Part shown: positions 11,801-33,450 of the stretch, piece by piece | Position numbering within the stretch: position 1 is the first letter of the stretch | How the letters are laid out: the number at the start of each line of letters is the position of its first letter | Origin: Thermobispora bispora DSM 43833 | Lineage (GTDB): Bacteria > Actinomycetota > Actinomycetes > Streptosporangiales > Streptosporangiaceae | NCBI RefSeq assembly: GCF_000092645.1 | Contig: NC_014165.1 | Coordinates: 1,736,001-1,800,000 of the forward strand | DNA: 64,000 nucleotides | Reading direction: 5' to 3' | Program-made: the position numbers and the translations under genes | Notes under the pieces: model-generated | Told to the model about the DNA's origin: nothing | Database searches by the model: none | Seen by the model: the letters and a program-made list of their open reading frames with translations, nothing else

Positions 11801-12036
11801 GCCCTACCCCCCCGGGGGGGCCGGGGATCATCCCCGCGTGCGCGGGGAGCACTACCTCTACCGCGACGAGGCCGGCAATGTGCTGGGATCATCCCCGCGT
11901 GCGCGGGGAGCACTGGACGTGTCGCACGCGCGGCATGGCGGGAAATGGGATCATCCCCGCGTGCGCGGGGAGCACTCCATGCGGCGAAGAAACCGAAGAG
12001 ACCCCCTGGGATCATCCCCGCGTGCGCGGGGAGCAC
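8835..12036 (-). CRISPR. Type I-E CRISPR array, 53 repeats and 52 spacers
   Basis: I count 53 copies of a 29-base repeat at 60-62-base intervals, leaving spacers of 31-33 bases. On the + strand each begins GGGATCAT, has the hairpin core CCCCGCGTGCGCGGGG and ends AGCAC. Read on the minus strand it begins GTGCTCCCCGCG and ends GGGGATGATCCC, the usual forward orientation of I-E repeats, so transcription is leftward and the leader lies to the right. The leftmost repeat (8835-8863) has two changes, GGAATCAT at its start and GCGTGGGG in its core, as expected at the old end. Other variants are repeat 9 (9323, C at the first base), repeat 10 (9384, ends AGTAC) and repeat 28 (10483, A at the first base). 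I noticed no duplicated spacer, but spacer origins were not searched. Confidence 0.98.
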
Positions 12037-12150
12037 TCTCCGCGACCTGCGCTTTCATGTCGCGCGGCCGCGGTTTCTGACCACTTTCAAAGATTCCGAC
12101 ATTTTGGACTATGTAAAGCTCTAGGTTTCGTTGCCTGTCAGCTGTGATCG
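12037..12150 (-). promoter_or_regulatory. Leader of the main CRISPR array
   Basis: This stretch directly abuts the rightmost repeat, on the side where the repeats are all perfect. Read leftward it goes from AT-rich sequence (about 12078-12125, including TTTACATAGTCC and AATCTTTGAAAG) to a GC-rich run of about 35 bases that touches the first repeat. An AT-rich block near the leader-end repeat is typical of I-E leaders, where new spacers are integrated and transcription begins. TACATA near 12115 could be a -10 element; I see no clear -35. The assignment rests on position and repeat orientation. Confidence 0.7.
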
Positions 12151-12219
12151 GCCGGGTGATGCCGTCGCAGGGCAAGAACCGATGGGCGGTGTCACCGGAC
12201 GACACGGCGACACGCGGGC

Positions 12220-15698: not shown

Positions 15699-18600
15699 CT
15701 ACGCCATCGTCACCCGGGTGAGCGGACCCTCCCCGGTGAGCCTCCGCAGCACCTGCAAGGCCGCACCGCGCGAGAGCAGGCCGTGGTGGCGCTCATTCCT
15801 TCGGTTGCGCAGGCACCCGTAACACGAGGTCTCCTCACCGCAGTCGCACTGCGCCATCCGGTCGAGAGCAGTCTGGGCTACAACGTCGAAGCGCTCGGCG
15901 ATTCGCAGTACTGCGCCGGCCCCGCCGGGCACCGTGTCGTAAATCACGAGACTCGGTCTGCCGCCGGCCCCGGTGTGGACCACACCGTCGATGTCATCGC
16001 GGCTGATCTCCAGGCCGTAGGCCGCACCTTCAAGCAGAGCGTGGAGGGTAGAGAGCCACTCGGCCGTCTCCTGGTGGAGGCCGTAGATGATGACCTCGAG
16101 GATGTCGGTCTCGTACAGGTGCCCCAGATCGCGCCACTGCAGCTCGCCGGTGCACTTCGTCCGCCTGAGCGGATCCTCATGCACTTTCTCGACCTTGCCA
16201 CCGGTGCGCGGGCGAGACCAGCCACACGCTGCGCAGATCAGGAAACCGGCCCCGCCCGGCCCGTACGAGAGCGCGATCATTTCCCCACGGGCTCCGGCCC
16301 GGCAGACCACGTGGGTGCCGCGCGTCGTGCGCCAGACGACCTCTGCAGGGTCGTCGGCGAGTTTGACCAGGTAGGTGCCGCCGTGCCACGAGGTCTCGGG
16401 CGGGGACGTGGCCGGTCGGCGCGTCTGGGGCGCGGCGACGAACCCGAACTCCGGGGTGCAGTACTCCCGCGGCGGCGAGGTGACTTCCGTGCCGCACACC
16501 GGGCACTCTGGGGCCTCGGCTTCGTCGGTATGCCGGAAGTGCTGGCAGCTCGGGCAGATGGCGTACCGCTTCGGGACGAGCTCACGCCCGGGCAGGCGGT
16601 AGATCCCGGTGGACCGCCACAGGACGCCACCGGCCACCACCTCGGCACCGGGAGCGTACTCGTAGATCGCGCTGGACAGGTCTCGGGTGAGCTCCAGCTT
16701 GGCGCCCACCGGGTTGTCACAGTGGATCGTGCGCAGCTCCACTGTGTCCACCGGGAACCCGTACTTGGGGAGCACGTTTCGGTTCGCCAGGAAACCGATC
16801 AGGTCACGCCGCATCAGGGTGTTGATGGTCCGCTGGTAGCGGTCCGCCTCCCGGTATCTGCGGGCCTCGGCCGCCTTGTCTCTCTTCTCCTCGAAGAGCT
16901 CGATGTCGTGGTTGAGCTCACGCCGTACCTTCTCCAGGTGATCGCAGAGCCGGGAGACCCACTTGCCGGAGTCCACCCCGATCTGGGCCTGGACCTCGGC
17001 CGGGAGCACGTGCCGCAGCGTTTCGGTGATCTCGGCGGGGACAGGGGTGAGGAAGTCGCGGACCCGGGTGCACGGGGGTTCCTGGCCCGGCCCGGGGCGG
17101 AAGAACTCGCCGGCGGTCCGCCAGATCGTGCCACTGGTCACCTTGGCGTGGCGGAAGAACGCCGCCAGCGCCACCGAGTGGGCGTGCCGCCGATCGATCC
17201 GCTCATTGCCGAGCGGCACGTACGGCGCACGCACGTAACCGGCGATCATCTCTTCCGGCTCCTGGTAGCGCGACAGGTCATGGGAGCGCCGCTGGGCGTA
17301 GGTGAGCACGAGCGCCGCGGAACCGGTGCGCCGCCCCACCCGGCCGGCCCGCTGCACGTAGTTGGCCGTGGTCGGCGGCATGTTCCGCAGCAGCACGCTC
17401 TCGAGCTCGCCGACGTCCACCCCGAGCTCGAACGTGGTGGAGCAGGACAGGACGTTCACCTCGCCGCGCAGGAACCGCTGCTGGATGTCGGCCGCCGCCT
17501 CACTGGTCCACTGGGCGGTGTGCTCCCGGGCGACCAGCGGGATCGGCGCCATGGACCGGTACAGGGACGTATAGTGCTCGTCCGGATCCGCGGTGGCCTC
17601 CACGAGTCGGCCCGTGCACCCCATGGTCGGGCACACGCCCCGGACGTTAATCGCGGTGAACCGGCGGCACAGCTCGCACCGGTAGAGCACGTCCGCGGGG
17701 GCGATCCGCAGCCAAGTGTGGTCCAGCTGATGGACGACCCCAGCCCTGCCGTTGCTCGTGCTGCGCAGCCACCCGTCCTTCAGGTTCGTAAGGAACGTCC
17801 AGCAGTTCTCCAGGACGGTGCCGGCGTCCGCTGGGGAGCAGCCGAGCGCCGCGAACACCCGCTCCAGATAGTCGAGCCGCCGGTTGCGCCCGCGGGTGGG
17901 CAGCCAGCTCAGCACCTTGTACCTGGGTTCGGCGCCGCGGTTGCGCACATAGATCGGCCCGGTTCGTGGGCTGAACCGCTCGTCACCGGGGTGCACTGCC
18001 TCCGGCATGGTGAGAACGCCCTGGTTGCGAAGGGTGCGGACGAGCTCTGCCAGTAACGCCCAGCCCTCCTCCTCGCTCAGGCCGAGATCAAGGAGCGGGC
18101 CCGGCAACCGCCATGCAGGGTCGCGGCTGAGCGACACCCGGATGAGGCCAAGGCCCTCCAACGACTTGCGCTCGTCGAGCGCGAGCAGCTCGCGCATGAT
18201 CCACAGAGCGACCTCGCGCTCGCGGGCCGAGGCATCCTCCTTGACCTCGAACACGCCGGCCCGCTCCGCCGCCTGGGTTACGTAGAAGATCAGCGTATCG
18301 ACGCTCGCGTCCGGGTACTTCTTGGCCGCTTGCTGCAGTCCTTGCATGATGAGGCGCCGATGCTGCAGCTCCGCGTAGGTCGTCTCGAGGTAGGGACCGA
18401 AGAAGGCCGCCGCCTGCCGGCTGTCGTTGAAGGTGAGCAGCTTGCGGCCCTCCCCTGGGTGATCGGCGGCCTCGGGGTGCGGTGACGGAGGGATCTGCTG
18501 GTAGAGCGCGGTTGCGAGAACCGCGGTGGTGGCGTCGGTGCCGCTCTCGAACCGCCGGATCATCTCCGCACCCCGTCCGCCGCAGACGAGGCAGCCGGTC

Positions 18601-20327
18601 GGGGATGCGGCGGGTGTGTTCAACCTGCGGACCAGCCGGAACTCCTGCTCCGGACACCCGTCCCGGCCGCATCGAGGCGGCCGCGCGCCGTGGAGCGCGC
18701 CACAGCGGGGGCAGAGGTAGGCGCGCGGCCCTTCGGAGACGTTCGTCACGTTCTCCAGGACGAGCTCGTCTTCGTCCACGACCTCGGGCGCGTCGTCCAG
18801 CAGCAGCCACCTCCGGCGCTCTTCGCTGCGGACGCGCGGGGTGAAAATGGAGCCGCTCGAGGTCTCCTGTACCGCACCGATCAGGTGGACGGCTCCGCAG
18901 CGCTTGCACCCGGCAAGCTCGAACATCGCACCTCGGCAGGTGGGACAGGACTCGCGCCGGTTGAGCGACACGTGCGGGCCTTCCCCGGTAAGGCAGGTGT
19001 ACGCCCCCTCGGTCGCCCGGGCGAACAGGTGGTAGCGGGCGGAGAGCACGGGCCGGCCGGATGCGTCGCGGACGCGGCCGCCGACGTCGACGAGTGCGGC
19101 GAGCCCGCCGCCTGGGTCTGCTTGCCCGCCGAAGACCAGCTGGGCGAGGTCATCGAAGGAGCGCGGCCCTTTCGCCAGGCTCCTGCGCAGCTCCGCCATG
19201 GCCTGCTCGTGAGCGAGGGCAGTGGCAGGGTCGCCGTACCGGCCGCCGGTCATCCGGAGCAGGGCGTGGCCGGGGTCGTCCTCCCGGGCGAGCTCCTTAT
19301 AGCCTTCGGCGGTGAGTGGCCCCCAGAACGGCCCGTCCGGCAGGGCGACGCGGCTGGCGCGGACCAGATCCCGGCGGGATTCATCGCTCTCGTCCCATTC
19401 GAAGGGCGCGTTGAACAGCTTGGCGGCGAACGCCATCACCGCGTGGGGGTCGTCGCCCACGGTGGCGCTCGTGGCGATGCACTGCAGCCGCCTGCCCCGG
19501 GCGACCCGGGCGTGCAGGCGGCGCAGCAGCATGCCCAGCTCTTCCGCCTTGGCACCGTCGTAGACGTGGGCCTCGTCGAGCGCGATGAACCGCCAACGCC
19601 CGCCGTGCTCGCCCTCGAACAGGTCCATGTCGGCCGGCCGCAGGAGCAGGTACTCGAGCATCGCGTAGTTGGTGAGGAGGATGTGCGGGGGAGTGGCGCG
19701 CATCTCCTCCCGGCTGAGCAGCTCATTCGGCAGCCGCCTCTCCCCGGGGTTGAGCTCCGTGAACTGGACGGCTGCGTCCTGCCGGCGCTCCTTGGTCTCC
19801 CCGACGTACCGGCCGAAGGTGATGTACGGCACGGCGGCCAGCAGCTGGCGCAGCCGCTTGAGCTGGTCATTGGCGAGCGCGTTCATCGGGTAGAGCAGGA
19901 GCGCCCGCACCCCGGGGGTGAGCGTCCCCTTCCGGTGCTCCTCGAGCAGATGGTTCAAGATCGGCAAGAGAAAGGATTCCGTCTTGCCGGAGCCGGTTCC
20001 TGTAGCGATGACCAGGTTGCGCCCGAGTGCGGCCTTGCGGATCGCCTCCTCCTGGTGGCGGTAGAGCGGGCGGTCCAGCGGCAGTGCCGGGCCGTCGAGG
20101 TCCCGGAATGCGGGTGACAGCACGCCTTCGTCGATGAGCCGCCGGAGGGTGGCCCCGGTCGCGTAAGGCGGGGTGGCCTCCAACAGCGGTCCCTTGGTCA
20201 GCATGGGGCTCTCGTTGATCGCGGCCGTCAGGGCCTGCGCGATCTCCGCGTCTCGGATGGGGAGGATCGAGCGCAGGTAACGCCGGTAGGTGTCGGTGAT
20301 CAGTTCACTCGCTTTCAGTGCATCCAC
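15699..20327 (-). CDS. Large SF2 helicase with C-terminal DUF1998 zinc domain
   Basis: A 1542-aa DExH helicase, last gene of the five-gene leftward operon. Motif Q/I region: LYRHQEEAIRKAALGR and ATGTGSGKTES with Walker A at 110-116; LLYPMNALANDQLKRLRQLL (motif Ia); ALDEAHVYDG at 249-258; ATSATVGDD (motif III); SCSTTFELGVDVGELESVLL and YVQRAGRVGRR (motifs V and VI) near residue 1000. Several Cys pairs lie in the middle and the C-terminal half (ESCPTCRGAMFELAGCKRCG, YLCPRCGA, YRCELCRR, YAICPSCQH, LICAACGW). The C-terminus has the DUF1998 signature YDTVPGGAGAVLRIAERF followed by CDCGEETSCYGC. DUF1998 helicases occur in defence systems such as DISARM (DrmA/DrmB) and Druantia (DruE) and in the repair helicase MrfA. 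This one could be the nucleic-acid motor of the operon. No DruA-D, DrmMI or DrmC homologues are seen beside it. Confidence 0.85.
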   Translation of the reverse strand: MDALKASELITDTYRRYLRSILPIRDAEIAQALTAAINESPMLTKGPLLEATPPYATGATLRRLIDEGVLSPAFRDLDGPALPLDRPLYRHQEEAIRKAALGRNLVIATGTGSGKTESFLLPILNHLLEEHRKGTLTPGVRALLLYPMNALANDQLKRLRQLLAAVPYITFGRYVGETKERRQDAAVQFTELNPGERRLPNELLSREEMRATPPHILLTNYAMLEYLLLRPADMDLFEGEHGGRWRFIALDEAHVYDGAKAEELGMLLRRLHARVARGRRLQCIATSATVGDDPHAVMAFAAKLFNAPFEWDESDESRRDLVRASRVALPDGPFWGPLTAEGYKELAREDDPGHALLRMTGGRYGDPATALAHEQAMAELRRSLAKGPRSFDDLAQLVFGGQADPGGGLAALVDVGGRVRDASGRPVLSARYHLFARATEGAYTCLTGEGPHVSLNRRESCPTCRGAMFELAGCKRCGAVHLIGAVQETSSGSIFTPRVRSEERRRWLLLDDAPEVVDEDELVLENVTNVSEGPRAYLCPRCGALHGARPPRCGRDGCPEQEFRLVRRLNTPAASPTGCLVCGGRGAEMIRRFESGTDATTAVLATALYQQIPPSPHPEAADHPGEGRKLLTFNDSRQAAAFFGPYLETTYAELQHRRLIMQGLQQAAKKYPDASVDTLIFYVTQAAERAGVFEVKEDASAREREVALWIMRELLALDERKSLEGLGLIRVSLSRDPAWRLPGPLLDLGLSEEEGWALLAELVRTLRNQGVLTMPEAVHPGDERFSPRTGPIYVRNRGAEPRYKVLSWLPTRGRNRRLDYLERVFAALGCSPADAGTVLENCWTFLTNLKDGWLRSTSNGRAGVVHQLDHTWLRIAPADVLYRCELCRRFTAINVRGVCPTMGCTGRLVEATADPDEHYTSLYRSMAPIPLVAREHTAQWTSEAAADIQQRFLRGEVNVLSCSTTFELGVDVGELESVLLRNMPPTTANYVQRAGRVGRRTGSAALVLTYAQRRSHDLSRYQEPEEMIAGYVRAPYVPLGNERIDRRHAHSVALAAFFRHAKVTSGTIWRTAGEFFRPGPGQEPPCTRVRDFLTPVPAEITETLRHVLPAEVQAQIGVDSGKWVSRLCDHLEKVRRELNHDIELFEEKRDKAAEARRYREADRYQRTINTLMRRDLIGFLANRNVLPKYGFPVDTVELRTIHCDNPVGAKLELTRDLSSAIYEYAPGAEVVAGGVLWRSTGIYRLPGRELVPKRYAICPSCQHFRHTDEAEAPECPVCGTEVTSPPREYCTPEFGFVAAPQTRRPATSPPETSWHGGTYLVKLADDPAEVVWRTTRGTHVVCRAGARGEMIALSYGPGGAGFLICAACGWSRPRTGGKVEKVHEDPLRRTKCTGELQWRDLGHLYETDILEVIIYGLHQETAEWLSTLHALLEGAAYGLEISRDDIDGVVHTGAGGRPSLVIYDTVPGGAGAVLRIAERFDVVAQTALDRMAQCDCGEETSCYGCLRNRRNERHHGLLSRGAALQVLRRLTGEGPLTRVTMA

Positions 20328-20384
20328 GGTCGCTCCGTAAACCAGGGGAGGACGCTCATCGGTTCGAGGCCGGGGGACGGCCGC

Positions 20385-22463
20385 TCATCGCCCGCTGGCG
20401 TCGGACCGGCGCCGGACGGGATGCCGGGGGAGGAAGATCCATTCTCCGCCCGGATTGCTGGCGCCGAGGACGCGCCCGGGTTCGTGCAGCCAGGGGAACT
20501 CGTGCTGCAGCTCCTTGTAGCTGTCGTTCGTCACCACCACGGCGTTCTTGCGCTCGGCCAGGGTGGCGACCAGCCGATCGGCTTTTCCGCTCGTGCCCGC
20601 GGGTACTGGGGTGATGAGGCCGGAACGGATGTGCCTCTTGAGCTCGTCGCGTTCGCCCTCCTCGAGCTGGTGGATCAGGGCGGCGTCCACGATCACGTCG
20701 ACGGTGGCCCCGGGGAACTGCTCCCGCAGCGCGGCCACCGCCTCGAGGAGCTGCGCCAGGCTGGGGGAGTCGTCGGCCTTCGCGTCGCGCCCCAACCAGG
20801 CGATGTTCGACCCGTCGACCACGAGCGCCCGAGGGCCGGAGCGCGCCCCGCCGCCCGGGGTGCCGGGTGTCCCGGCCGGAATGCGGCCCGGTGCGGGCGC
20901 GGCCGCCCGGGCGGCCTGGCCCGTGGTCGGCGGCCGGGCCGCGGCGGGGGACGGGTGGGCTGGGAGCCCTTCCAGCGCGGTCATCTGCCGCCGGATCTCG
21001 TCGATGGAGATGGACCCGCCGTGGGTGAAGTCGGAGATCTCCTGGTCGACCAGCACCCGGCCGTCCCGGTCGAGGGTGGCCTTTACGTGGAGCAAGCCGT
21101 CCCGCTGGTAGGTGTATTCGAGCGTGAAGGAGGCCTGATTGCGGGGGAGGGGCTCCGGGTACCGGACGTTCAGCGTGGTGAGCTGGAAGTTCTCAGGGTC
21201 AGACAGGGGCTTGTCTGGATCGGCCTCCCAGATCTCGATGTTCACCTCGGGCTGGAAATCCGTTTTGGGGGAGTAGTTCTTCTTCTCCCGGATGGGCAGC
21301 GGCGACCGCGCCTTGATGATCTCGCTGAAGACCTTCCGGTCACCGTGCTCGCTTTCGTAGACGGCGGTGCCGAGCGCGTACATGGAGGAGACCTGCAGGT
21401 AGCTGTCGAGCTTCTTGTCCAGGATCGCTGCGGCGATCGCCGCCCCACGGGCCACCGCGGTCATCGGGTGGCAGATCTCGGCCGGCACGGCCTCGGCGTC
21501 CATTAGCCGCTCGACCGCGGCGCGCACGCACGGCATCTGGCTCGTGCCCCCGATGAGGAGGATGTCGGTGATGGCGGTGGGCGCCAAGCCGAGATCGTTG
21601 AGGCACATCCGGACCGGCTGGAGGGCCTGCTCGACGAGTGGCTGGATGGCGTCCTCCAGCTCTGGCCGGGACACCTCGATCAACCGCTTGACCCCGGGGA
21701 CCCGGGTGAGGACCGTCTCCTCCGTCGACAGGCGGATCTTCGTCCGCTCCACCGCGAGCGCGAACTGCCGCTCCTCCTCCAGGGACAGCTCGGGTAGGCG
21801 GCCGATCTTCCGGATGATCAGCTCGCGCAGCCGCTTGTCGATCTCCAGGCCTCCCAGCTGGGTGAGCCCACGCGACGCGCGCTCCTCGAACACGCCATCC
21901 CGGTGCTCGAGGATGGTGACGTCGATGGTGCCGCCGCCCCAGTCGAAGACCATGATCATGCCTTCGTCCTGGATGTCGTGCATGTAGGAGAGCGCCGCGG
22001 CGGTCGGCTCGTTGAGCAGGGTCTTGACCTGGATGCCCGCGGCGCGCGCGGCGGCGCGGGTGCGATACCGGGCTCCGCCCTTCGCGTTGGCCGGCACGGT
22101 GATGACCGCGCTGTCGATGGTGGTGAGGTTCTCCTCCGCCCGCTCGCGCATCGCCTTGAAAACCCCGGCGGCGGCCGCGGTCGCCGACACCCGGCGGTCG
22201 CGGAGGGCCACCGTGCCGTCGTCGCGCAGCATGCGCTTGCACGCCTCGATCACCCGGTTCGCGCGGAGCTTGGCCTCCCAGCCGAACAGCGTGCCGAGGC
22301 GCAGGGAGCTCTCACCGATGATGGTGGGGAAGAGGTATTCGAACGAGGGGTAGAACCATTCGTCTTCGAGGTGCTCGCTGTCCAGGGTGAGCACCTCGAC
22401 ATCCGTCCCGTTCCATTGGGCGACGACGGAATTCGTGGTGCCGAAATCGATTCCAGTGGACAT
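20385..22463 (-). CDS. Hsp70 (DnaK-like) chaperone fused to a NYN/Zc3h12a-type RNase domain
   Basis: A 692-aa fusion. Residues 1 to about 360 form an Hsp70 ATPase: GIDFGTTNSVVAQW (phosphate 1), VITVPANAKGGARYRTRAAA and NEPTAAALSY (connect 1), VFDWGGGTIDVTI (phosphate 2, about 172), LLIGGTSQMPCV (adenosine motif, about 305). A short substrate-binding-like beta region follows to about 480, then a Pro/Ala/Gly linker, then from about 542 ALVVDGSNIAW, DVIVDAALIHQL, KADRLVATLAERKNAVVVTN and DSYKEL. These match Zc3h12a/NYN RNases, including the four expected acidic positions. The start is ATG 22463 (or ATG 22469); neither has a well-spaced ribosome site, and the upstream gene ends at 22489. Neighbours are GrpE-like and J-like genes, so this looks like a dedicated Hsp70 system whose client binding could place an RNase. 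Fusion is clear; function is inferred. Confidence 0.85.
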   Translation of the reverse strand: MSTGIDFGTTNSVVAQWNGTDVEVLTLDSEHLEDEWFYPSFEYLFPTIIGESSLRLGTLFGWEAKLRANRVIEACKRMLRDDGTVALRDRRVSATAAAAGVFKAMRERAEENLTTIDSAVITVPANAKGGARYRTRAAARAAGIQVKTLLNEPTAAALSYMHDIQDEGMIMVFDWGGGTIDVTILEHRDGVFEERASRGLTQLGGLEIDKRLRELIIRKIGRLPELSLEEERQFALAVERTKIRLSTEETVLTRVPGVKRLIEVSRPELEDAIQPLVEQALQPVRMCLNDLGLAPTAITDILLIGGTSQMPCVRAAVERLMDAEAVPAEICHPMTAVARGAAIAAAILDKKLDSYLQVSSMYALGTAVYESEHGDRKVFSEIIKARSPLPIREKKNYSPKTDFQPEVNIEIWEADPDKPLSDPENFQLTTLNVRYPEPLPRNQASFTLEYTYQRDGLLHVKATLDRDGRVLVDQEISDFTHGGSISIDEIRRQMTALEGLPAHPSPAAARPPTTGQAARAAAPAPGRIPAGTPGTPGGGARSGPRALVVDGSNIAWLGRDAKADDSPSLAQLLEAVAALREQFPGATVDVIVDAALIHQLEEGERDELKRHIRSGLITPVPAGTSGKADRLVATLAERKNAVVVTNDSYKELQHEFPWLHEPGRVLGASNPGGEWIFLPRHPVRRRSDASGR

Positions 22464-22488
22464 CCTCATTCCCCGGACGTGCTCTCGG

Positions 22489-23340
22489 TCATCGTCGGTG
22501 CTGCTCGGGCAGGGGGCCGTCGGTCCAGCGCACCCGGCCGGAGCGGATCGTCTGCCCGGTCTGCACATCGATGTAGGCCGGCTCCACTACCTCCAGGCTG
22601 GGGCCTTTGCCCTTGCCGATCTGCTCGAACCGATCACGGTGGGCCTCGGGATCGTCGACGCGTTCCAGGCCGGCCCGGACGAACCATTCCGGCAGCAGGT
22701 CGGGAATGTGCTCCAGCATCCCGTCCTTGGCCAGTCTGTCCAGCTCGACGAGGTGGGTCAGGTGCAGTCTTCGGCTGCGCAGTGCCTCGAGCACGGCGCG
22801 CCGGATGATCTGCTGCACCTGGTCTTCGGTGAGCTTTAGCTTCGCCGAGCGTTTGATGTCCTTGCTCTGCTCTATCAGCTCCGACGCCCGCTCCGTGAAG
22901 GCCGCCAGCAGCTTCCCGGGCTCAAGGTGCGTGCGCTCGGCGGCGATCGCGTCCAGCCGCTCCTCCATCTCGGCGCGCAGCCGCGCATGGATCTGATCCG
23001 CGATCTCCTCGTAAATGTTCTTGTGCAAGGTTGCCCGGATGCACTCGGCGATCTGGTTGCGCAGCTCGTTCCTGACGAACTGCGTCAGCCGGAGCCGGGC
23101 CTCCTCGACGGTCTGCTCGATCTGCTTCTGGAGCAGCCGCTCGAGCCTTTCGAAGCCACCGGCGAGCTCTCGGGAGATGCTTCGCGCCGTGCCACGACTG
23201 TCGGCCGATTGGTCGGCCCGGGCGGGACGGTCTCCAGGCACGTGCGAGCCGGACGCGGCCGCACGGCCGGCGGCCGGCTGCGGGGCGACGTGGTTCTGCT
23301 TCGAGGGCACGGTTGTGCGCGGTGTGCGTCGGGATCTCAT
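22489..23340 (-). CDS. Coiled-coil protein, possible GrpE-like exchange factor
   Basis: A 283-aa protein. Residues 1-50 are basic and disordered; about 55-170 are charged helix rich in Glu, Arg and Gln (FERLERLLQKQIEQTVEEAR, FVRNELRNQIAECIRATLHK) typical of a long coiled coil; the C-terminal end reads SLEVVEPAYIDVQTGQTIRS then GRVRW, which resembles the last strands of GrpE (EVLQPGY...RPAxVxV pattern). A coiled coil with a small C-terminal beta domain is the GrpE layout, and the gene lies directly between Hsp70 and J-like genes, so a nucleotide exchange role is plausible. Similarity is weak and by eye only. Its ATG shares one base with the TAA of the upstream gene, so the genes are coupled. 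Confidence 0.5.
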   Translation of the reverse strand: MRSRRTPRTTVPSKQNHVAPQPAAGRAAASGSHVPGDRPARADQSADSRGTARSISRELAGGFERLERLLQKQIEQTVEEARLRLTQFVRNELRNQIAECIRATLHKNIYEEIADQIHARLRAEMEERLDAIAAERTHLEPGKLLAAFTERASELIEQSKDIKRSAKLKLTEDQVQQIIRRAVLEALRSRRLHLTHLVELDRLAKDGMLEHIPDLLPEWFVRAGLERVDDPEAHRDRFEQIGKGKGPSLEVVEPAYIDVQTGQTIRSGRVRWTDGPLPEQHRR

Positions 23341-24950
23341 TAGGGGTTCCTTGGCTCGTGCCGGAGTTCATCGAGGAGCGTGCGGGCCGCCGCGTTGCGG
23401 AGCATGCGGAAGTCCCGGGGCTCGCTCTGCGTCCTCCGGGGAAGGGGTTCGAGCGGCGGCGCCAGGCGGGGCGAGCGTCGCCGCGGGGCCTGCAGGTTCT
23501 TCTCCTCTAACGGGAGGACGTAGAAGTCCGCGCCGTGGCGGTCGGCATGGGTGAGGCGCCGTTTCGCCTCGTTGATCATGGTCAGCCTGTCGAGGTCGTC
23601 GTCGAACTCCTTGCGCAGCCGCCGCCAGGTGGCCTCCCAGCCGGGCGCCCCGTGGGGGAGCCCCAGCATGAGGTAGGGGTTCTCCCAGTACTCCCGCCTA
23701 TTCCGTGGGAGGGACCGGCGCTCCTTCAGCCGGCGGATGTTCTCCGTGACCTCCGGGTAGACGTCCGCCACCTCGTCGAGCAGCCTGATCGCGCGGTCGA
23801 GCTCCTCCGTCTCCTGGGCGAGGTAGGCGGCCATGTTGTGGATCTCGGCTCGGAGCTGCCTGCTGACGAGGTGCCGCCCGCCGCGCACCTGACGGGCGGC
23901 GTCCACGAGGAGCTCCGCTTGTTCCCTGGCCTTGCGCAGGTCGCGGGCGAGGATCCAGCGGTAGGCCTGGTGCGCGGCCCGCCAGGCGTGGAACTCGCCG
24001 GCCTTCGGGTTGATGAGACCGGCCGGTGACCACAAGGCCATCAGCAGCGCCCAGAAGCCACGCTCGGCGGTGATGTGCGCCGGCCAGTGGCCGGTCTGCG
24101 CGCCACGCATGATCTCGTCGAACAGTGGGCGCTGCTCCGGGGGTAGCGAGGCTCTCAGTCGGATGTCGGCATGCCCCTGCCAGAACCTCGCGAGCATGGC
24201 GTAGACGTCGTCGCCGTCGAGGTCCTCGCCCGCGAGGAAGGCGTGCCACCGGTCCAGCTCCGCCCATCCCAGCCGCCGGGCGTCGTCGCGGCTCAGCGAC
24301 CGGGGGATCAGCCGCGCGCGGAGGTAGAGCCGCTCGCCAGCGTCCCCCCGCATGTTCCACGGCTCCTCGTCCCGGCCCACCACGCCAAGGTCGATCAGGT
24401 CGTCGACGACGGCCAGCGGAAGGCGGGGGAGTACCGGGGTGATTTCGTCCGGGCGGACGCGCGCAGGATGACCGAGCGCCGCCAGGTAGATCCGCCATTC
24501 CGCGGGTCCGTCGAGCAGGTCGGCGCCGGGCAGGGACACCTCGCCCGCCCGGGGGTGCTCGGCCGCGAGCACCTGAACCCGGCGCATGCCGGTCTCGCTC
24601 ATCCAGGGCATCCCGGCCTGGAGGAGACGGTCCAGGTGCGCGATCAGGCGGGCGGGGGCGAGCGTGGCCAGCGCGGCCTTGACCGCGACGGGGAGCACGC
24701 GTGGGGGCGGGCCGGTGAGGGCGGCCCGAATGATCGCCGCGTCGTCCGCGGAGACCTTGCCCTCCTCCAGGAGGGTGGACAGCGCCCGGCGTATCCGGGT
24801 CACCGAGTCCTCGCCCTGAATTCCCAGGTCCGCCCAGGCTTTACCGATGGGATCCGTGCCGTGGTCCAGGGACTTGAGCGCCGTAAGCCGCTGCCGGCGC
24901 TTCTCGCGCCAGGCCTTGACGAGCTCAGTGCGGGAGATGGACGCGTCCAG
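23340..24950 (-). CDS. Protein with C-terminal J-like domain, probable Hsp70 partner
   Basis: About 536 aa if started at CTG 24950, which follows GAGAGGT at good spacing; the alternative GTG at 24803 gives 487 aa, but the 49 extra codons read naturally (ISRTELVKAWREKRRQRL) and no ATG is in frame before a TGA. Residues about 100-410 are helical and unassigned (LDRWHAFLAGEDLDGDDVYA, FHAWRAAHQAYRWILARDL). From about 418 the sequence is NPYLMLGLPHGAPGWEATWR, then LRKEFDDDLDRLTMINEAKR, matching the helix I-II and helix III layout of a J domain, with the INEAKRRL end typical of DnaJ. The HPD tripeptide, needed in canonical J proteins to stimulate Hsp70, is absent. It lies upstream of the GrpE-like and Hsp70-RNase genes. 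Domain call moderate, start uncertain. Confidence 0.6.
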   Translation of the reverse strand: MDASISRTELVKAWREKRRQRLTALKSLDHGTDPIGKAWADLGIQGEDSVTRIRRALSTLLEEGKVSADDAAIIRAALTGPPPRVLPVAVKAALATLAPARLIAHLDRLLQAGMPWMSETGMRRVQVLAAEHPRAGEVSLPGADLLDGPAEWRIYLAALGHPARVRPDEITPVLPRLPLAVVDDLIDLGVVGRDEEPWNMRGDAGERLYLRARLIPRSLSRDDARRLGWAELDRWHAFLAGEDLDGDDVYAMLARFWQGHADIRLRASLPPEQRPLFDEIMRGAQTGHWPAHITAERGFWALLMALWSPAGLINPKAGEFHAWRAAHQAYRWILARDLRKAREQAELLVDAARQVRGGRHLVSRQLRAEIHNMAAYLAQETEELDRAIRLLDEVADVYPEVTENIRRLKERRSLPRNRREYWENPYLMLGLPHGAPGWEATWRRLRKEFDDDLDRLTMINEAKRRLTHADRHGADFYVLPLEEKNLQAPRRRSPRLAPPLEPLPRRTQSEPRDFRMLRNAAARTLLDELRHEPRNP

Positions 24951-25046
24951 TGTGACCTCTCATATTCCGAGGGGAGACACTGATCGGTGAGCGGGCCGTG
25001 ATAGGTGGTCCGATGGTACTACCCGTGCCCTTTGCCCGGTCTGCGG

Positions 25047-28000
25047 TCAGGTGACCATGGACCGCTCCGCGACACCGGACGGCGGGGAGTGATCCTCGGA
25101 CGCCGCGATCAGAAACTCGGCCCTGATCAAGTCGATCGCGGTGAGGTCGGGGGCGAGCTTGGCGAGCATGCGCCAGAGGGGCCGGAACCGCTCTTCGAGG
25201 TCCCGGCAGCCTTCGTGCCCGCGGGCGGCGGCTCGGGCGAGGAGGGCGCAGGCGATAGAGACCGCCGGCAGCGACACCCAGCCCTCGAGCCGGTCCGGGT
25301 CGCAGCGTTCGGTGACGTACCGCTCCAGCCCGCGCAGCCGGGTGCCGCGCAGCGCCGTGAGCGCGTGGCGGATCAGGTGCGCGGATACCTCGGCGAGGGT
25401 GCGGGCGTCCCGGCTGTTCCTCCGGTCGAACAGAGCCCGTGCCGCGGCCATGCGGGTGTCCACGTCCAGCAGCGCCTTCGGGACGACCTGGGCCGCGCTC
25501 CAGAGCTCTTCGAGCCGCTCCGGCTCGTGGCGGGCCAGCACCTCCGCGGCCCGGTCGAACTTGCCCACGTGCGGGTAGGGGTCACCGCGGCCGAGCAGGA
25601 TCTCCATCGCCGCCGCCCCGCATACCGCCTCGACCTCGGCCCGCAGGTCCGGATGGTCGGCGATCTCGGGCAGGACCGGGCTCGACAGCAGGGCGGCCGC
25701 CACCGGAGCGGTGCGCCACAGCCCCACATCGGACTCCCGGAAACCGGCGGTGCGCCCGGCGGCGAGCCCTGTGGTGATCACGGCGACCACGGTCCGGTCC
25801 GGAGGCAGCCCGGCGGCGGGCAGGTGCCGGAGAGCCTCCGGGTCCCGGCGGAGCGCCGCCGCGCAGTGCCCGATCCACCGGCCGGCCGCCGCGTAGTCGA
25901 CCCGGTTGGCCAGGTCGACGATCGCCCAGAGGCGGTCGAGGCGGGTCACCTCCGGGGGGAACGTCTTCGCACCGGCCAGGTAACCGGACAGCCACCGCTC
26001 CTCGGCGTCGGCTCCGCTGTAGTGGCCCGGCATCGGGCAGGCGAGCAGCTCGCTTGGCTTGGGCCACCGGGGCCACTCCGCGGGGGCCCAGGGGTCCTCC
26101 ACGGCGAGCCGGACGTGCAGCGGGCCGGCGTGCTGTAACGCGGGCGGGAGCGGGATCGAGCCGTCCCGCTCGACCGGGATCAGCTCCGGCCCCCGCCACG
26201 GGGCGGTGTACAGGTAGACGCCCGCGGTGAGCCCGTCCACCCAGACGCACTCATCGAGGATGAGCCGGTCCCCGCTGGCGGTGACGCCCGAGGCGAGCCT
26301 GGCCGGCCGCACGTACCCGATGGGGAGCCGGTAACCGGGCACCGAGAGCACTAGGTCGGCGCTGCGGTACCGGGCCACCGTGTCCTGGGCCTGGGTGAGG
26401 TCGTACCGGCCGCCCTGGGGGGTGAGCCGCTGCACGCACTGGCCGCCCGCGTGGAGCTCTAGCGGCGGGAGCGTGTCCGCGCCGGGCAGGTCGACCCTCA
26501 GGGATTCGGCCTCGGCGAAGAACTCGGCCGCCAGCCGCACCGGGCGGGAGCTCCACTTGGGGCTCTCTCCCCTCCGCTCCAGCAGGACGCGCATCTGGGG
26601 CGGGGAGACGAGCAGCGGCTCGCTCTCGCTCGCCGTCGTGCAGGTGACGACATGCTCGCGCTCCCCGGGGGCGTACTCCGGGGTGGCCGGCTCCACGGTC
26701 ATGCCCGGCCCGGCGGTGAGCACCGCGCGGCCCGGGGCGAGGCCCTCGGGGGTGAACAGGCGCACGCGCGGGTGGTAGGCGGCGGTGAGCCCTTCGGCGA
26801 TGACCACGGTACGGCGGGTGCTCCGGCCGATCGGCCCGCGCACCGTGATCTCGAACGCGCCGAGCAGGGGCCGGGACAGGCCGGCCCAGAGCTCCTCCCC
26901 GAGCTCGACCGGTTCACCGACGGTGAAGGTGCCGGTGAAGACGGCGGGCCCGCCCGCGGCCGGCCGGATGTCGACGTGCCAGGTGAGCGTCGCCTCCGCG
27001 GGCAGCCACACGCGGGGCGGTGCGGCGTGCACGGGCGAGCCGTACGGCGTGGTGACCCCTGGGACGGGGTCGCTGGTGATCACGCGGGGCCGGCTGTACC
27101 CGCGGATCGGGCGGTGCCGGCCGCCAGACAGGCCGACCCAGGTCGCGCCCGCCGGCTCGACCAGGGCGAGGCGCCAGCCGCCCCAGCCGATGGGCAGCGG
27201 GCTCTCGGTGACCACCCGGATCTCCCCGTCAGAGGCGAGATCCCGGTCGCGGGGGTGGAGCACCCAGATCTGGTCCGGGGGCACACCGAGCCGGGGGGAG
27301 ACGTGCCGCCCGTCCTCGCTGAAGATGAGCAGCGGGTCGCCGGGGTCGACGATGTCGAGGTGCGTCTCGTGCGCCGTGCCGTACAGGGAGACCTGGGCGG
27401 AGCGGGCGGGTCGCGGCAGGGGGAAGGTAGTCGCGGGCGCGCCCTCGGCGGCGCCCACCCAGAGCGCGCGGCTCTTGACCACGGTGGGCACCCCGTCGAC
27501 GATCACCTGCCACCGCGCGGTGCCGTCGGGCGCCTCCCCGATGGGCGGCAGCACGATTTGGACGCCCTGCCCGTACGGGTCGATCGCGAGATGTGGCGGC
27601 TCGACCCGGCGCCGTCCCCGGCCAGGCGCGGGCTCCCGGATCAGGTCAAGTTCGCCCTCACGGGCGAGCTCCTGCGCGCGGTCGAGGAACCGCGCGGGCA
27701 GGCCGAGGCCGCTCAGGTCCGGGTCCGGCGAGTGCAGCCGGTCGAGGAGGTCCAGGCACCGGTCGATCACGTCCAGGGCGTAGTCGGTGCCGAAGCGGAT
27801 GAAGTTCTGCGCGGGCTTGTCGAGCGTGCCGAGCCTGCCGGGCCGGTCGGTGGCCCAGGAGAGCAGGGTGCCGGCGTCGATGGTCGGGTCCTGGCGGCGC
27901 CGTTGCACCAGGAGGGTGAAGAAGTCCCGCAGGCAGTAGGTGGGGATGCCCGCGTGCATGAGGATCGGCCCGACGTACCGCTGCGGGTCGTCGAGCACGG

Positions 28001-28373
28001 GCAGGCCGAACCGTTCCAGGGTCGCCAGGTACGCCTTGCCCCAGGCGGTGGCGTCCTGGAGGTCGGGACGGCCGGCGCAGTCCAGCGCCTCCCAGAGGTA
28101 GGGCCAGTAGGTGCCCCGCTGGTAGCGGTGGGCCGCCACGCCGGTGAGGGTGACGGCGATGCAGGCGGGCCAGCGGTCGAAGAACGACCGGTGGCGGCGC
28201 TTTTCCACCCTCAGCCGGTAGAGGTGGCCGAGCGCCCGGGCGGCCGCGTCGAGCGTCCGGCGATCGACCTCCAGCTCGGTGATGAGCGACACGCTGGAGA
28301 GCTTCGGGCCCCACTCGGATTCGAGCCGGTCGAGCAGTGCCGCCAGCTCCCAGTCGGAGAGCACCGTCGTCAT
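25047..28373 (-). CDS. Large protein of unknown function, first gene of the chaperone/RNase/helicase operon
   Basis: A 1108-aa protein I do not recognise. The N-terminal 250 residues are helical, with conserved-looking aromatic stretches (FDRWPACIAVTLTGVAAHRY, GTYWPYLWEAL, YVGPILMHAGIPTYCLRDFF). From about 290 to 830 it is rich in beta-forming segments, Pro and Gly, resembling repeated Ig-like domains (TLTWHVDIRPAAGG, FEITVRGPIGRSTRRTVVIA). The last 250 residues are helical again, Ala/Leu/Arg rich. No signal peptide, no membrane segment, no P-loop. Its size, leading position in the operon and probable own promoter suggest a scaffold or sensor for the four genes that follow. Base composition matches its neighbours. 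Confidence 0.75.
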   Translation of the reverse strand: MTTVLSDWELAALLDRLESEWGPKLSSVSLITELEVDRRTLDAAARALGHLYRLRVEKRRHRSFFDRWPACIAVTLTGVAAHRYQRGTYWPYLWEALDCAGRPDLQDATAWGKAYLATLERFGLPVLDDPQRYVGPILMHAGIPTYCLRDFFTLLVQRRRQDPTIDAGTLLSWATDRPGRLGTLDKPAQNFIRFGTDYALDVIDRCLDLLDRLHSPDPDLSGLGLPARFLDRAQELAREGELDLIREPAPGRGRRRVEPPHLAIDPYGQGVQIVLPPIGEAPDGTARWQVIVDGVPTVVKSRALWVGAAEGAPATTFPLPRPARSAQVSLYGTAHETHLDIVDPGDPLLIFSEDGRHVSPRLGVPPDQIWVLHPRDRDLASDGEIRVVTESPLPIGWGGWRLALVEPAGATWVGLSGGRHRPIRGYSRPRVITSDPVPGVTTPYGSPVHAAPPRVWLPAEATLTWHVDIRPAAGGPAVFTGTFTVGEPVELGEELWAGLSRPLLGAFEITVRGPIGRSTRRTVVIAEGLTAAYHPRVRLFTPEGLAPGRAVLTAGPGMTVEPATPEYAPGEREHVVTCTTASESEPLLVSPPQMRVLLERRGESPKWSSRPVRLAAEFFAEAESLRVDLPGADTLPPLELHAGGQCVQRLTPQGGRYDLTQAQDTVARYRSADLVLSVPGYRLPIGYVRPARLASGVTASGDRLILDECVWVDGLTAGVYLYTAPWRGPELIPVERDGSIPLPPALQHAGPLHVRLAVEDPWAPAEWPRWPKPSELLACPMPGHYSGADAEERWLSGYLAGAKTFPPEVTRLDRLWAIVDLANRVDYAAAGRWIGHCAAALRRDPEALRHLPAAGLPPDRTVVAVITTGLAAGRTAGFRESDVGLWRTAPVAAALLSSPVLPEIADHPDLRAEVEAVCGAAAMEILLGRGDPYPHVGKFDRAAEVLARHEPERLEELWSAAQVVPKALLDVDTRMAAARALFDRRNSRDARTLAEVSAHLIRHALTALRGTRLRGLERYVTERCDPDRLEGWVSLPAVSIACALLARAAARGHEGCRDLEERFRPLWRMLAKLAPDLTAIDLIRAEFLIAASEDHSPPSGVAERSMVT

Positions 28374-28881: not shown

Positions 28882-31800
28882 GTGGAACCCGGTAGCAAGC
28901 GCTGGATCGAGGTCACCCCTTCACAGCACGCCCACGAGCGGGGCGGCCTCGCCGCCATCCGGGCACTCCTGCCGGACGCCGAGCCGTACCGCGCCTGGAG
29001 CAACTTCACCTTCACCACCAAGGGCAACCGGCAGTACGAGGTCGACCTGCTCGTCATCGGCAAGGCCGGCATCTTCCTGCTGGAGCTGAAGCACTGGTCC
29101 GGCACCATCACGGGCGACCACCAGACCTGGTTCCACAACGGGTTCGCCGAGGACAACCCGCGCATCCTGGCGGAGAGCAAGGCCAAGCACTTCAAACAGC
29201 TCCTCATCGAGACCGGCGAGCGGGCCGTACCGTTCGTCTACGCGGGCGTGGTGCTGCACAACCCCGAAGCCCAGGTACGGCTCACCGAGCGCGGCCGGGC
29301 CGGGGTCTACCGGATCGACGGTCAAGGCCCGGCCGGCCTGCCTGAGCTGATCAAAGACCTCATCACCGCCGAACCGCGCAACCCCCACCACCTGATCGAC
29401 GCCAAGCGCTCCCAGGACCTCGCCAAGTTGATCAAGAAGGCGGGGGTACGGCAGAGCATGCAGTTCCGCAAGGTCGGCAACCTGCTGCTCGCCGAAGACC
29501 CGATCGCGGAAGGGCCGGGCTGGCAGGACTACCTGGCCAAGCATCCGATGCTCGACCGGCCGCGCCGCGTCCGCTTCTACCTGGTGAACAAGGCCGCCTC
29601 ACCGAACGAACGGGCCGCGATCATGCGGGCCGCCCAGCGCGAGTTCATCGTGCTGGAGAACCTCAACCACCCCGGCATCGCGCGGGCCATCGAGTTCTAC
29701 GAGCACGAACGCGGCCCGGCGGTGGTGTTCGATCACGACCCGACCGAGACGCGCCTCGACCACTTCATGCGGCAGAAGGGCGCGGCACTCACCGTCGAAC
29801 AGCGCGTCGACCTGGTCCGCACGCTCGCCCAGACACTCCGCTACGCGCACTCCCGGCGGCTCGTGCACCGCCGGCTCAGCCCGCTATCGGTGTTCGTCCG
29901 CAACCTCGCCCAGGGCAAGTACGGCGTGCGGGTGAGGGACTGGCACACCGCCGGCCGGCTGATGCCCGGCACGCCCGGCCATCGTGCACAGGTCGCGGGC
30001 ACCCGCACCCTCGACGCCCTGACCGACAAGGGCGCACATGGCTACATCGCCCCCGAGACGCTGCACAGCCCGGACGCGGACCCGATCCTCGCCGACATCT
30101 TCGGGCTCGGTGCCGTCTCCTACCTGATCTTCACTGGTGCCGCCCCCGCCGAGTCGAGCGAGCAGCTCCACCAGCGGCTCGCCCGCGAACGCGGCCTGGA
30201 CGTCCGGGTCGCCCTGGACGGCGCCCCGCAGGCCATGGTCGACCTGGTCCACGACGCCACCGCCGCCGACGCCGACCTGCGCATCGCGTCCGTGGACGAG
30301 TTCGTCGAGCGCCTGGAGCGGCTCGCCCAGGAGGTCACCGCCGAGCAGGCCGCCGCCGAGCAGGTCGATCCGCTCGAGGCGGTGGCGGGGTCGCGGATCG
30401 GCCCCGCCGACGATCCGACCCGGTTCGAGGTGATCCAGCGGCTCGGCCAGGGCTCCACCGCGCTCGCCCTGCTGGTCAAGGACCCGGTGCACGGCCAGGC
30501 GGTGCTCAAGGTCGCCATCGACGAGGAGGACGCGCGGCAGCGGCTGCTCGATGAAGCCGAGGTGCTCCCCCTGGCCCGGGACCCACGCGTGGTGCGCTGC
30601 CTCGAAGGGCCGATGACGGTGGGCGGACGCACCGCCCTGCTGCTGGAGGACGCCGGGCGGGAAACCCTGGCCGCCCTCATCCGCCGGGAAGGCCGGCTCT
30701 CCCTGGACTTCCTCGCCCGGTGGGGCACCGACCTGCTCGACATCCTCGCCGCGCTCGACCTGGCCGGCATCAACCACCGCGACATCAAGCCGGACAACCT
30801 CGCCTTCCGGGAGCTGGGCAAGAACCGCGAGGTCCACCTCACCCTCTTCGACTTCTCCTTGTCGCGGGCCCCGCTGGAGCAGACCGCCGTCGGCACCCCG
30901 CCGTACCTCGACCCGTTCTTCGACCCGGTGCACCGGCCCCGCTACGACGCGGCGGCCGAGCGCTACGCCGCCGCGGTCACGCTCTACGAGATGGCCACCG
31001 GCCAGACCCCGATCTACGGTTCGGGGACCAGCCACCCGGCCGTGATCGACAGCGATGTCACGATCGATCCGGAGGACTTCGAGCCCGGGCCGGCTCGCGA
31101 CCCGCTCATCGCGTTCCTCCGCAAGGCGCTCGCTCGCGATGTCAAGCAGCGCCATGACTCGATCGAGAGCATGCGCCTCGAGTGGCGGGCGGTGTTCGAG
31201 GCGGTGCCGCCCGCGGCCGCCACGCCGGCGAGCGTCAACCCGGTCACCGGCAAGGAGCTCGACGAGGCGGCCGCCCGTGCCACGCTGGACACGCCGATCG
31301 CCGCGGCCGGCCTCACCCCGCGCGCGGTCGACGCGCTGCACCGGATCGACGTCCGCACGGTGCGGGACCTGCTCGCGCGCTCGCCCTTCGAGCTCTCCCG
31401 CCTCTCCGGCGTCGCCGACCCGACGAAGCGGGAGATCAGGCGCCGGGCCAAGCAGTGGCGGGCCCGGCTCCAGCCGGCCACGCCGGAGCCCATCGGCACG
31501 GGTGAACCGGCGGACGATCTCGGGCGCGGGGTCGACGCGGTGCTCCGCTCGCTACTCCCCAAGGGGGTGAAGCCGGACACCGCGGAGGCCCAGGTGCTGC
31601 GCTGCTACCTCGGGCTGGAGGAAACCGAGTCCGCCTGGCCGACCAACGCGGAGCTCGGCGAGGCCGCCGGGGTGACCGCGGGCCGGGTGAGCCAGATCCT
31701 GCCCAAAGCTCGCAAGCGCTGGCGGCAGAGCAAGGCCCTCGCCGAGGTGCGTGACGAGATCGTCCACCTGGTGACCGAGGCGGGCGGGGTGCTCTCCGCC

Positions 31801-33045: not shown

Positions 33046-33450
33046 CATCACCGCGGGGTCGTTTCCGGGGATGCACGGCAAACGTCGGACGCCACCCAAG
33101 GAAAGGCACACGCGGCAGGGAATCGGGGCAGCCAGGGCGAATACGGGTCACGCTAGGTATCCACGCCTGGATTTCAGGGCTCAGAGAAGGGAGTGCCGTC
33201 CGTAATCGGATGAGCACCACATGAGAGGCTCGCCATCTTCAGCCGACTCCGTATGCAGCCGAGCTCCCCAGAATGGTGCACGTGTTTCGGTGGCGCTTGT
33301 ACCGAAATGTACTGTTCCATAACGATTTGGAGCGTTACAAGATGATTACTTCTGACCGGATTCCCCAGTGAATGTGCGGTCGTTCTTGCGAGACTTTCCG
33401 GAAATGTATGGGTGGCCCCTTATGCGTGCGTAGTCACGGAAGGTGAATAG
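33046..33450 (+). promoter_or_regulatory. Intergenic region with candidate pglX promoter
   Basis: About 405 bases between pglW and pglX with no gene. The second half (33290-33420) is AT-rich. TTGTAC at 33297-33302, 17 bases, then TAACGA at 33320-33325 is a fair -35/-10 pair, followed by about 125 bases before the GTG start of pglX, whose ribosome site is GGAAGG at 33438-33443. A separate promoter for pglXYZ would let the methylase, ATPase and phosphatase-like genes be expressed independently of the kinase. Confidence 0.45.

What the first reader, a model, noticed from the sequence alone, without database searches (positions are those of the whole stretch)
15699..28373. Five-gene operon combining an Hsp70-RNase fusion, J-like and GrpE-like partners, a DUF1998 helicase and an unknown 1108-aa protein
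Seen directly: five leftward genes with overlaps or short gaps, a good promoter in front (28430-28458), placed between CRISPR-Cas and BREX-2. Known: DUF1998 helicases are central in Druantia and DISARM, and NYN/Zc3h12a domains are RNases. Inference: a complete Hsp70 machine (Hsp70, J, exchange factor) with an attached RNase and a helicase could sense a phage product or a misassembled complex, unleash the RNase and use the helicase on foreign nucleic acid. I recognise no described defence system with this set, and the marker genes of Druantia, DISARM and BREX accessory modules are absent.
Basis: partly seen in the sequence, partly recalled or inferred. Interest (0 to 1): 0.88.

Follow-up and report, generated by a model that had tools for sequence, protein, structure and literature searches.

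The report
Chaperone–RNase cassette inside Druantia-like defence operon
A heat-loving actinobacterium carries an antivirus gene pair of a known kind (Druantia type III-like) with a three-gene chaperone set between its two genes, including an Hsp70 that has an RNA-cutting domain in place of its lid; the same set also sits in other helicase-based antivirus systems, which suggests a reusable plug-in.

Summary
The five genes are real and conserved, but read best as 2 + 3. The outer genes, X (1108 aa) and H (DUF1998/YprA helicase), form a two-gene unit elsewhere: X is directly followed by H in 10 of 10 relatives fetched first. H is DruE-like (PADLOC DruE3, 580 bits), so 'Druantia markers absent' is wrong. 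X has a DruH-like layout but only a weak profile link to DruH. The inner genes (TPR/J-like, GrpE-like, Hsp70-NYN) are a separable cassette. Among 20 genomes with a strong match it lies between X and H in four, behind X-H in one, divergent beside X-H in one, between drmMI and drmA of a DISARM operon in one, behind Druantia IV helicases in four, there without the NYN, and apart in nine. Cassette and X trees disagree, as exchange would give. The J-like domain lacks HPD and the Hsp70 lacks its lid. Best mechanism, inferred: a chaperone-gated RNase unit docked on YprA-helicase immune complexes. I found no description in the papers searched. Function is untested.

The parts
25047..28373 (-). Gene X, 1108 aa: helical N-part (about 1-240), array of Ig/FNIII-like beta domains (about 260-780), helical C-part (about 790-1093); DruH-like partner of the helicase
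   Evidence: No Pfam, PADLOC or NCBIfam hit; AF2 model pLDDT 77.5; weak matches of the beta part to Ig/FNIII/macroglobulin-type chains; hhalign to DruH profile E 5e-4, probability 31; directly precedes H in relatives
23340..24950 (-). Gene J, about 536 aa (CTG start inferred; the finder's GTG is at 24803): almost all-alpha TPR-like solenoid with a C-terminal J-like domain lacking HPD
23535..23681 (-). J-like domain region of gene J
   Evidence: hhalign to DnaJ E 9.7e-5, probability 58.3; helices 376-379, 389-399, 404-423 of the 487-aa model
22489..23340 (-). Gene G, 283 aa: GrpE-like; the part like GrpE's C-terminal domain is about 22504-22764
   Evidence: hhalign to GrpE E 1e-4, probability 57.5; no Pfam GrpE hit
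20385..22463 (-). Gene K, 692 aa: Hsp70 ATPase domain and beta substrate-binding domain, helical lid replaced by a NYN domain
   Evidence: Pfam HSP70 2e-63, matched to profile position 488 of 599; PDB DnaK match over query residues 8-499; catalytic motifs kept
20499..20831 (-). NYN/Zc3h12a RNase domain of gene K
   Evidence: Pfam PF11977 E 1.8e-8; acidic motifs conserved; weak to solved NYN RNases (E 0.37-0.88)
15699..20327 (-). Gene H, 1542 aa: DruE-type YprA/DUF1998 helicase without a recognised C-terminal nuclease; MZB domain about 15810-16043
   Evidence: PADLOC DruE3 580 bits; Pfam DEAD, Helicase_C, MZB; PDB 9tu7 E 3e-76
28882..43583 (+). Neighbouring BREX-2/Pgl genes (PglW, PglX, BrxC/PglY, PglZ), context only
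890..12200 (.). Neighbouring type I-E CRISPR-Cas genes and repeat array, context only

Best explanation
Shown by sequence: the locus is a Druantia III-like helicase pair (X + H) with a separable three-gene cassette (J-like, GrpE-like, Hsp70-NYN) between its two genes; the same cassette occurs in a DISARM operon, behind Druantia IV helicases and alone. Inferred mechanism: the TPR/J-like protein docks the lid-less Hsp70 on the YprA-helicase complex; the Hsp70 ATP cycle, reset by the GrpE-like protein, is gated by an exposed peptide segment (a phage protein or a disturbed partner); engagement releases or positions the NYN RNase, which cleaves RNA at the helicase-engaged invader or in the cell. 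The cassette thus adds a protein-state sensor and an RNase arm to a DNA-helicase system whose helicase has no recognised nuclease domain. In Druantia IV, where the NYN is absent, only the chaperone part would act.
For: DruE identity of H. X directly followed by H in 10 of 10 relatives; in the class survey, of 16 X genomes without an inserted cassette, 15 show an intact H start directly after X and one a truncated H (G056 is in both surveys). J-G-K between X and H in four genomes (window, L033, L063, L069). J-G-K between drmMI and drmA in L073, while drmMI abuts drmA in 10 of the 11 other loci where drmMI is in view, and none of 30 DrmA loci has J-G-K within 1.5 kb. J-G-K behind the Druantia IV helicase in four genomes (DruE4 by PADLOC in G171 and G172, and by my H profile in G520 and G658; DruF in all four, DruL in the two tested). 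Context swaps in the K tree against a single X clade. Hsp70 motifs kept in all 25 K rows; DGSN in 16 of 16 NYN-bearing rows, ND in 15 of 16. No nuclease Pfam hit in H.
Against: No phage or RNase assay exists. Nine of 20 cassettes are not joined to a YprA helicase, so docking on one is not obligatory. The J-like domain lacks HPD, so it may not stimulate the Hsp70 ATPase as a true J protein would. The NYN match to solved RNases is weak (E 0.37-0.88). J-G-K is absent from 30 of 30 DrmA loci and 3 of 3 strong DruE4-like loci surveyed, so it is an optional extra. Homology of X to DruH is not proven.
Confidence: 0.42

Rival explanations
1. The J-G-K cassette is an autonomous conflict system (chaperone-triggered RNase, possibly abortive) with its own sensing; its sharing of operons with Druantia and DISARM is co-mobilisation of independent systems.
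For: Nine of 20 strong copies stand apart from X-H, DISARM and Druantia IV (and for L034, L035), and all nine keep the NYN motifs; standalone and embedded copies mix in the K tree; DnaJ-dependent phage sensing is reported for bNACHT25 (PMC12169576, abstract).
Against: In five genomes the cassette sits inside a same-strand gene run of another system (four X|JGK|H, one drmMI|JGK|drmA) and in four it directly follows a Druantia IV helicase, which loose co-location does not predict.
Confidence: 0.3
2. A dedicated assembly and quality-control chaperone for very large, zinc-rich YprA helicases; the NYN trims the operon's own mRNA or is a safety device, not an effector.
For: The partner shared by the embedded copies is a large YprA-type helicase; in the four Druantia IV copies the chaperone is kept and the NYN missing.
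Against: X-H pairs mostly do without the cassette, as do 30 of 30 DrmA loci; standalone copies keep the NYN without an adjacent X-H, DISARM or Druantia IV helicase.
Confidence: 0.2
3. A member of the GAP1-N2 HSP70/GrpE/DnaJ-TPR conflict theme (Kaur et al. 2020) that has lost its GTPase part and been captured by helicase systems. This concerns origin and can hold together with the best explanation.
For: That theme, in actinobacteria, combines HSP70, GrpE and an FNIII protein fused to DnaJ or TPR (PMC7159879, section read). Five distant relatives of the cassette lack the NYN; in three (L075, L085, L087) the J-like part is a small separate ORF, and in two (L075, L076) vWA or PP2C genes lie nearby.
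Against: No GAP1-N2 or GTPase family was found in the window operon or among the scanned neighbours of the distant relatives; no FNIII match in J.
Confidence: 0.2
4. A housekeeping chaperone operon, or chance neighbours.
For: Hsp70, J and GrpE are normally housekeeping functions.
Against: The genome has its own GrpE and two DnaJ elsewhere; the cassette is rare (16 strong J matches in 341 family genomes); five-gene order kept in four genomes.
Confidence: 0.02

Closest known systems
Druantia type III (DruH-DruE), including the 'type III-like/III-B' branch of Bell et al. 2025
   Same: H is a DruE-type YprA helicase; X precedes H as DruH precedes DruE; X has helical ends around Ig-like domains, as described for DruH (passages of PMC13192584; own model); no recognised nuclease on H, which is said to be most frequent in a Druantia III-like branch (PMC12458937, section read)
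   Different: X is not recognised by any family model searched and its profile link to DruH is weak; three extra genes lie between X and H. Whether X-H is the 'III-B' branch itself was not tested
DISARM class 1
   Same: In Actinomadura logoneensis the same J-G-K cassette lies inside drmD-drmMI-drmA-drmB
   Different: The window operon has no drmA, drmB or drmMI; 30 other DrmA loci lack the cassette within 1.5 kb
Druantia type IV (DruE-DruF-DruL of PADLOC)
   Same: Four loci have J-G-K directly behind the Druantia IV helicase
   Different: Their Hsp70 lacks the NYN; the passages seen of PMC8565338 name DruE, DruF and DruL only; PADLOC has no hit for the window's J and only weak ones for K (PDC-M61B, 17 bits) and G (LeoBC, 11.5 bits), and none at 1e-3 for J, G, K of G171 and J of G172
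GAP1-N2 conflict systems, HSP70/GrpE/DnaJ theme (Kaur et al. 2020)
   Same: HSP70 + GrpE + DnaJ/TPR logic in actinobacterial conflict loci (section read)
   Different: No GAP1-N2 or GTPase found in the operon; the Hsp70 here carries an RNase and is joined to YprA helicases
CoCoNuT CnuD Hsp70-like proteins (Bell et al. 2024)
   Same: Hsp70-like protein in a restriction locus, linked with RNases and sometimes Druantia III (passages)
   Different: No McrB GTPase found among the five genes; Hsp70 motifs are kept, whereas Walker A-like motifs are described as degenerate in CnuD

Membership tests
Druantia type III | DruE-type YprA/DUF1998 helicase | tested here: met
   PADLOC DruE3 580 bits, DruE1 576 bits; MZB; PDB 9tu7 E 3e-76 (taken as DruE because the neighbouring entry 9tud is named DruH)
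Druantia type III | DruH (STY4851/ECs_5259-type) partner | tested here: inconclusive
   No PADLOC or NCBIfam hit; BLASTP to an E. coli DruH only E 0.002 over 83 residues; hhalign X vs DruH E 5e-4, probability 31, 476 columns; similar domain layout. DruH profile found in 0 of 296 class genomes, which the tool calls uninformative without a positive control
Druantia type III | Two adjacent genes, sensor then helicase | tested here: met
   X directly before H in 10 of 10 relatives and in 15 of 16 in a second survey, one with truncated H; in the window separated by J-G-K
Druantia type III (E. coli kind) | C-terminal PLD-type nuclease on DruE | tested here: not met
   No nuclease Pfam hit in H; the protein ends 36 residues after MZB
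Druantia type III | Protection against phages | not testable with these tools
   Needs an experiment
DISARM | drmA, drmB and a methyltransferase in the operon | tested here: not met
   H matches DrmA at 53 bits against 580 for DruE3; no methyltransferase match among the five genes
GAP1-N2 HSP70 theme | HSP70 and GrpE genes together | tested here: met
   HSP70 by Pfam; GrpE-like by profile comparison only
GAP1-N2 HSP70 theme | GTPase with GAP1-N2 protein | tested here: not met
   None among the five genes
CoCoNuT | McrB-type GTPase (CnuB) | tested here: not met
   None among the five genes
Canonical DnaK | ATPase domain, beta substrate domain, helical lid | tested here: not met
   First two met; no lid match, NYN in its place
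J-domain protein | J fold with HPD motif | tested here: not met
   J-like by profile but no HPD in 23 of 23 rows
GrpE | GrpE family match | tested here: inconclusive
   No Pfam hit; hhalign E 1e-4, probability 57.5
NYN/Zc3h12a RNase | Conserved acidic active-site residues | tested here: met
   DGSN, the second VD and the third D each in 16 of 16 NYN-bearing K; ND in 15 of 16, NG in L038. Which residues are catalytic is recalled; activity not tested

The most novel reading that the evidence does not exclude
A mobile Hsp70-RNase cassette (HPD-less J adaptor, GrpE-like reset factor, lid-less Hsp70-NYN) is a general plug-in that gives helicase-based bacterial immune systems (Druantia III-like, Druantia IV, DISARM) a chaperone-type sensor of protein state and an RNA-cleaving arm, and can also act alone.
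Probability: 0.4. Interest if true: 0.87.

Novelty: new variant of a known kind. Interest (0 to 1): 0.72.

Why it matters
Helicase-based defences such as Druantia and DISARM are usually described as acting on nucleic acid. An Hsp70 module recurrently wired into three of them would link them to protein-state sensing, as DnaJ does for bNACHT25, and would show that immune systems share exchangeable control cassettes. The natural presence/absence pairs (X-H with and without J-G-K; drmMI-drmA with and without J-G-K) make the role directly testable. It would also give defence-finding tools three protein families that the PADLOC copy used here does not model.

Tried and rejected
Considered and rejected: one indivisible five-gene system (the trio is separable); a housekeeping chaperone operon (own GrpE and DnaJ elsewhere); chance ORFs.

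Led nowhere: J and X searched by tblastn in plasmids, no match; proteobacterial DruH profile in 296 class genomes, no match; X profile against PDB sequences, none at E up to 1; Foldseek of J against PDB, none at E 0.001 or better, best E 0.14, many TPR proteins; Foldseek of X, nine matches at E 0.001 or better but TM-scores near 0.1, so only a repeated beta-sandwich arrangement is indicated; VIA-align of X, best Z 6.7, within the range of common arrangements, DruH not listed (the library ends April 2026); blastn of L073 against its nearest DISARM relative aligned only the drmA-drmB side, because no drmMI was found in that relative's 15-kb stretch. I could not obtain the M. smegmatis DruH (MSMEG_1253) sequence, so whether X is its kin is untested.

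Papers: PMC12458937, abstract, two of three parts of the results, and the legends; PMC7159879, one section and passages; PMC11090510, PMC8565338, PMC13316683, PMC13192584, PMC8195603, PMC3710099, PMC3035289, passages only; PMC12169576, abstract and outline. That the set is not in print rests on the paper search over an open-licence library (the lists show 12 of 2,189 and 12 of 727 papers, those all but one), and on finding none of Hsp70, DnaK, DnaJ, GrpE, NYN, chaperone in PMC12458937. Subscription papers and supplements were not searched.

Limits: the surveys share genomes. The weak J matches (3 of 19, 5 of 12) are left out of the 20. One search had matches in 106 of 126 genomes; only the three with E below 1e-190 were taken as DruE4-like. 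One search looked at 20 of the 30 DrmA loci. Neighbours of the nine standalone cassettes were scanned selectively, not blind: eight loci had two or three neighbours scanned; restriction- or Abi-type matches were found beside L034 (RAMA domain only), L035, L066, L067, L068 and L072, none beside L064 and L065; L070 was not scanned. The chance figures rest on assumed rates and are not used.
Full report
What is there. The window is from a 4,189,976-bp chromosome, the published length of Thermobispora bispora R51T (passages of PMC3035289). Five minus-strand genes lie at 15699-28373, here called X, J, G, K, H in transcription order. Gaps are short; J probably begins at a CTG at 24950 and K at ATG 22463. 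The flanks are type I-E CRISPR-Cas and BREX-2/Pgl genes. A sigma-70-type scan found no promoter in front.

H is a Druantia-type helicase. It scores 580 bits against PADLOC DruE3 and 576 against DruE1, but 53 against DrmA, carries DEAD, Helicase_C and MZB/DUF1998 domains, and matches PDB 9tu7 at E 3e-76. No nuclease domain was recognised after MZB; Bell et al. report that helicases of a Druantia III-like branch most frequently have no nuclease domain (PMC12458937, section read).

X and H are a unit of their own. In the first survey X was found in 11 of 60 genomes including the own one, and in the 10 relatives H follows X directly. In a class survey X was found in 18 of 296 genomes; two of these (window, G060) have J-G-K in between, and of the other 16, 15 show an intact start of H directly after X and one (G287) a truncated H. 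X has no family hit. Its AF2 model (pLDDT 77.5) shows helical ends around a long beta region. That region's best matches are Ig/FNIII/macroglobulin-type chains, with low TM-scores and Z up to 6.7, so a repeated beta-sandwich arrangement is all they show. DruH is described as helical ends around Ig-like domains (passages of PMC13192584). Profile comparison with seven DruH proteins gives E 5e-4 but probability only 31, and BLASTP with an E. coli DruH E 0.002. I therefore call X DruH-like, not DruH.

J, G and K are a separable cassette. J is almost all-alpha (AF2 pLDDT 93.6) with TPR-like matches below significance and a C-terminal J-like domain (hhalign to DnaJ E 9.7e-5, probability 58.3); G matches the C-terminal domain of GrpE (E 1e-4, probability 57.5); crossed controls stay below probability 1. 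No HPD tripeptide occurs in any of 23 J rows. K aligns with DnaK over residues 8-499, covering the ATPase and beta substrate domains, and then carries a NYN domain instead of a lid. The Hsp70 motifs checked are kept in all 25 K rows with small variations (for example NESTAAA in L073, DFGGGT in L076). In the 16 rows with a NYN the acidic motifs are kept, one row (L038) having NG for ND. By sequence alone the NYN matches solved NYN RNases only weakly (E 0.37 or worse).

Where the cassette occurs. Searches with J gave 6 of 296 class genomes, 19 of 341 family genomes, 16 of them strong, and 12 of 394 class genomes, 7 strong; together 20 different genomes with a strong match. Their contexts: X-J-G-K-H in four (window; G060, Microbispora amethystogenes; G586, Streptosporangium carneum; G594, S. 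subroseum); X-H-J-G-K in one (G454, Nonomuraea jabiensis); divergent beside X-H in one (G023); drmD-drmMI-J-G-K-drmA-drmB in one (G530, Actinomadura logoneensis); behind a Druantia IV helicase in four (G171, G172, G520, G658); apart from these systems in nine. In one of the nine (G318) an X-H pair lies 18 kb away. For the Druantia IV group, PADLOC DruE4 was run and met in G171 and G172, the other two rest on my H profile; DruF was found in all four and DruL in the two tested, G171 and G520. These four copies lack the NYN. All nine standalone copies keep it. Species names rest on contig-length identity with records.

It is an insertion that comes and goes. Of 20 DrmA loci examined for DrmMI, 11 have it in the flank; in 10 it abuts drmA, in one (L217) it lies about 1 kb away. 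None of the 30 DrmA loci surveyed carries J, G or K within 1.5 kb, and none of three strong DruE4-like loci found among 126 class genomes does. In the X tree the five X proteins whose J-G-K lies between X and H or directly behind H form one clade (100/98). In the K tree their cassettes are interleaved with standalone and DISARM ones, with at least three changes forced by well-supported branches. For example X of L071 groups with the window (98/99), but K of L071 with L067 and then L069 (100/100, 100/99). Exchange of the cassette independently of X-H is the simplest reading.

How it probably works (inference). The recurrent partner of embedded copies is a YprA-family helicase. A TPR/J-like adaptor is a natural docking factor; loss of HPD suggests that it tethers rather than stimulates. 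A lid-less Hsp70 with a nuclease at the lid position could couple peptide binding and nucleotide state to RNase placement, with the GrpE-like protein resetting it. Precedents: phage sensing that needs DnaJ (PMC12169576, abstract), HSP70/GrpE/DnaJ-TPR conflict systems (PMC7159879, section read), and Hsp70-like proteins in CoCoNuTs (passages of PMC11090510). Autonomy of the cassette is the strongest rival, because nine of 20 copies stand apart. Nothing here shows activity.

Novelty. Druantia III-like helicase pairs and chaperones in conflict systems are known. A lid-replaced Hsp70-NYN cassette moving among Druantia III-like, Druantia IV and DISARM systems was not found in print in searches, two of which list only the top 12 papers of long lists. 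I rate it a new variant of a known kind.

Noticed in passing
window 8900-12200: Type I-E CRISPR repeat array with about 61-nt period; 52 copies of a repeat-containing 36-nt unit were found, next to Cas3e.
   Followed up: partly
L020, L022-L024, L164, L166-L171: Shorter X variants (ORFs of about 500-740 aa) that keep the start and the central beta region but lack most or all of the C-terminal helical part, each followed by H.
   Followed up: partly
L037:9898-15126 (minus): A 1743-aa protein with TIR, STAND-like and TPR matches lies beside the Druantia IV + J-G-K locus of G171.
   Followed up: no
L075, L076, L085-L087: Distant G/K relatives without NYN; the J-like part is a separate small ORF in L075, L085 and L087, and vWA or PP2C genes lie nearby in L075 and L076.
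   Followed up: partly
L043:11879-18199 (minus): A 2107-aa ORF with weak H similarity (172 bits) lies downstream of the J-G-K cassette of G297, about 9 kb past the end of K.
   Followed up: no
L021:4609-8070: A second H-like helicase ORF lies in the same region as X-H and J-G-K in G023.
   Followed up: no
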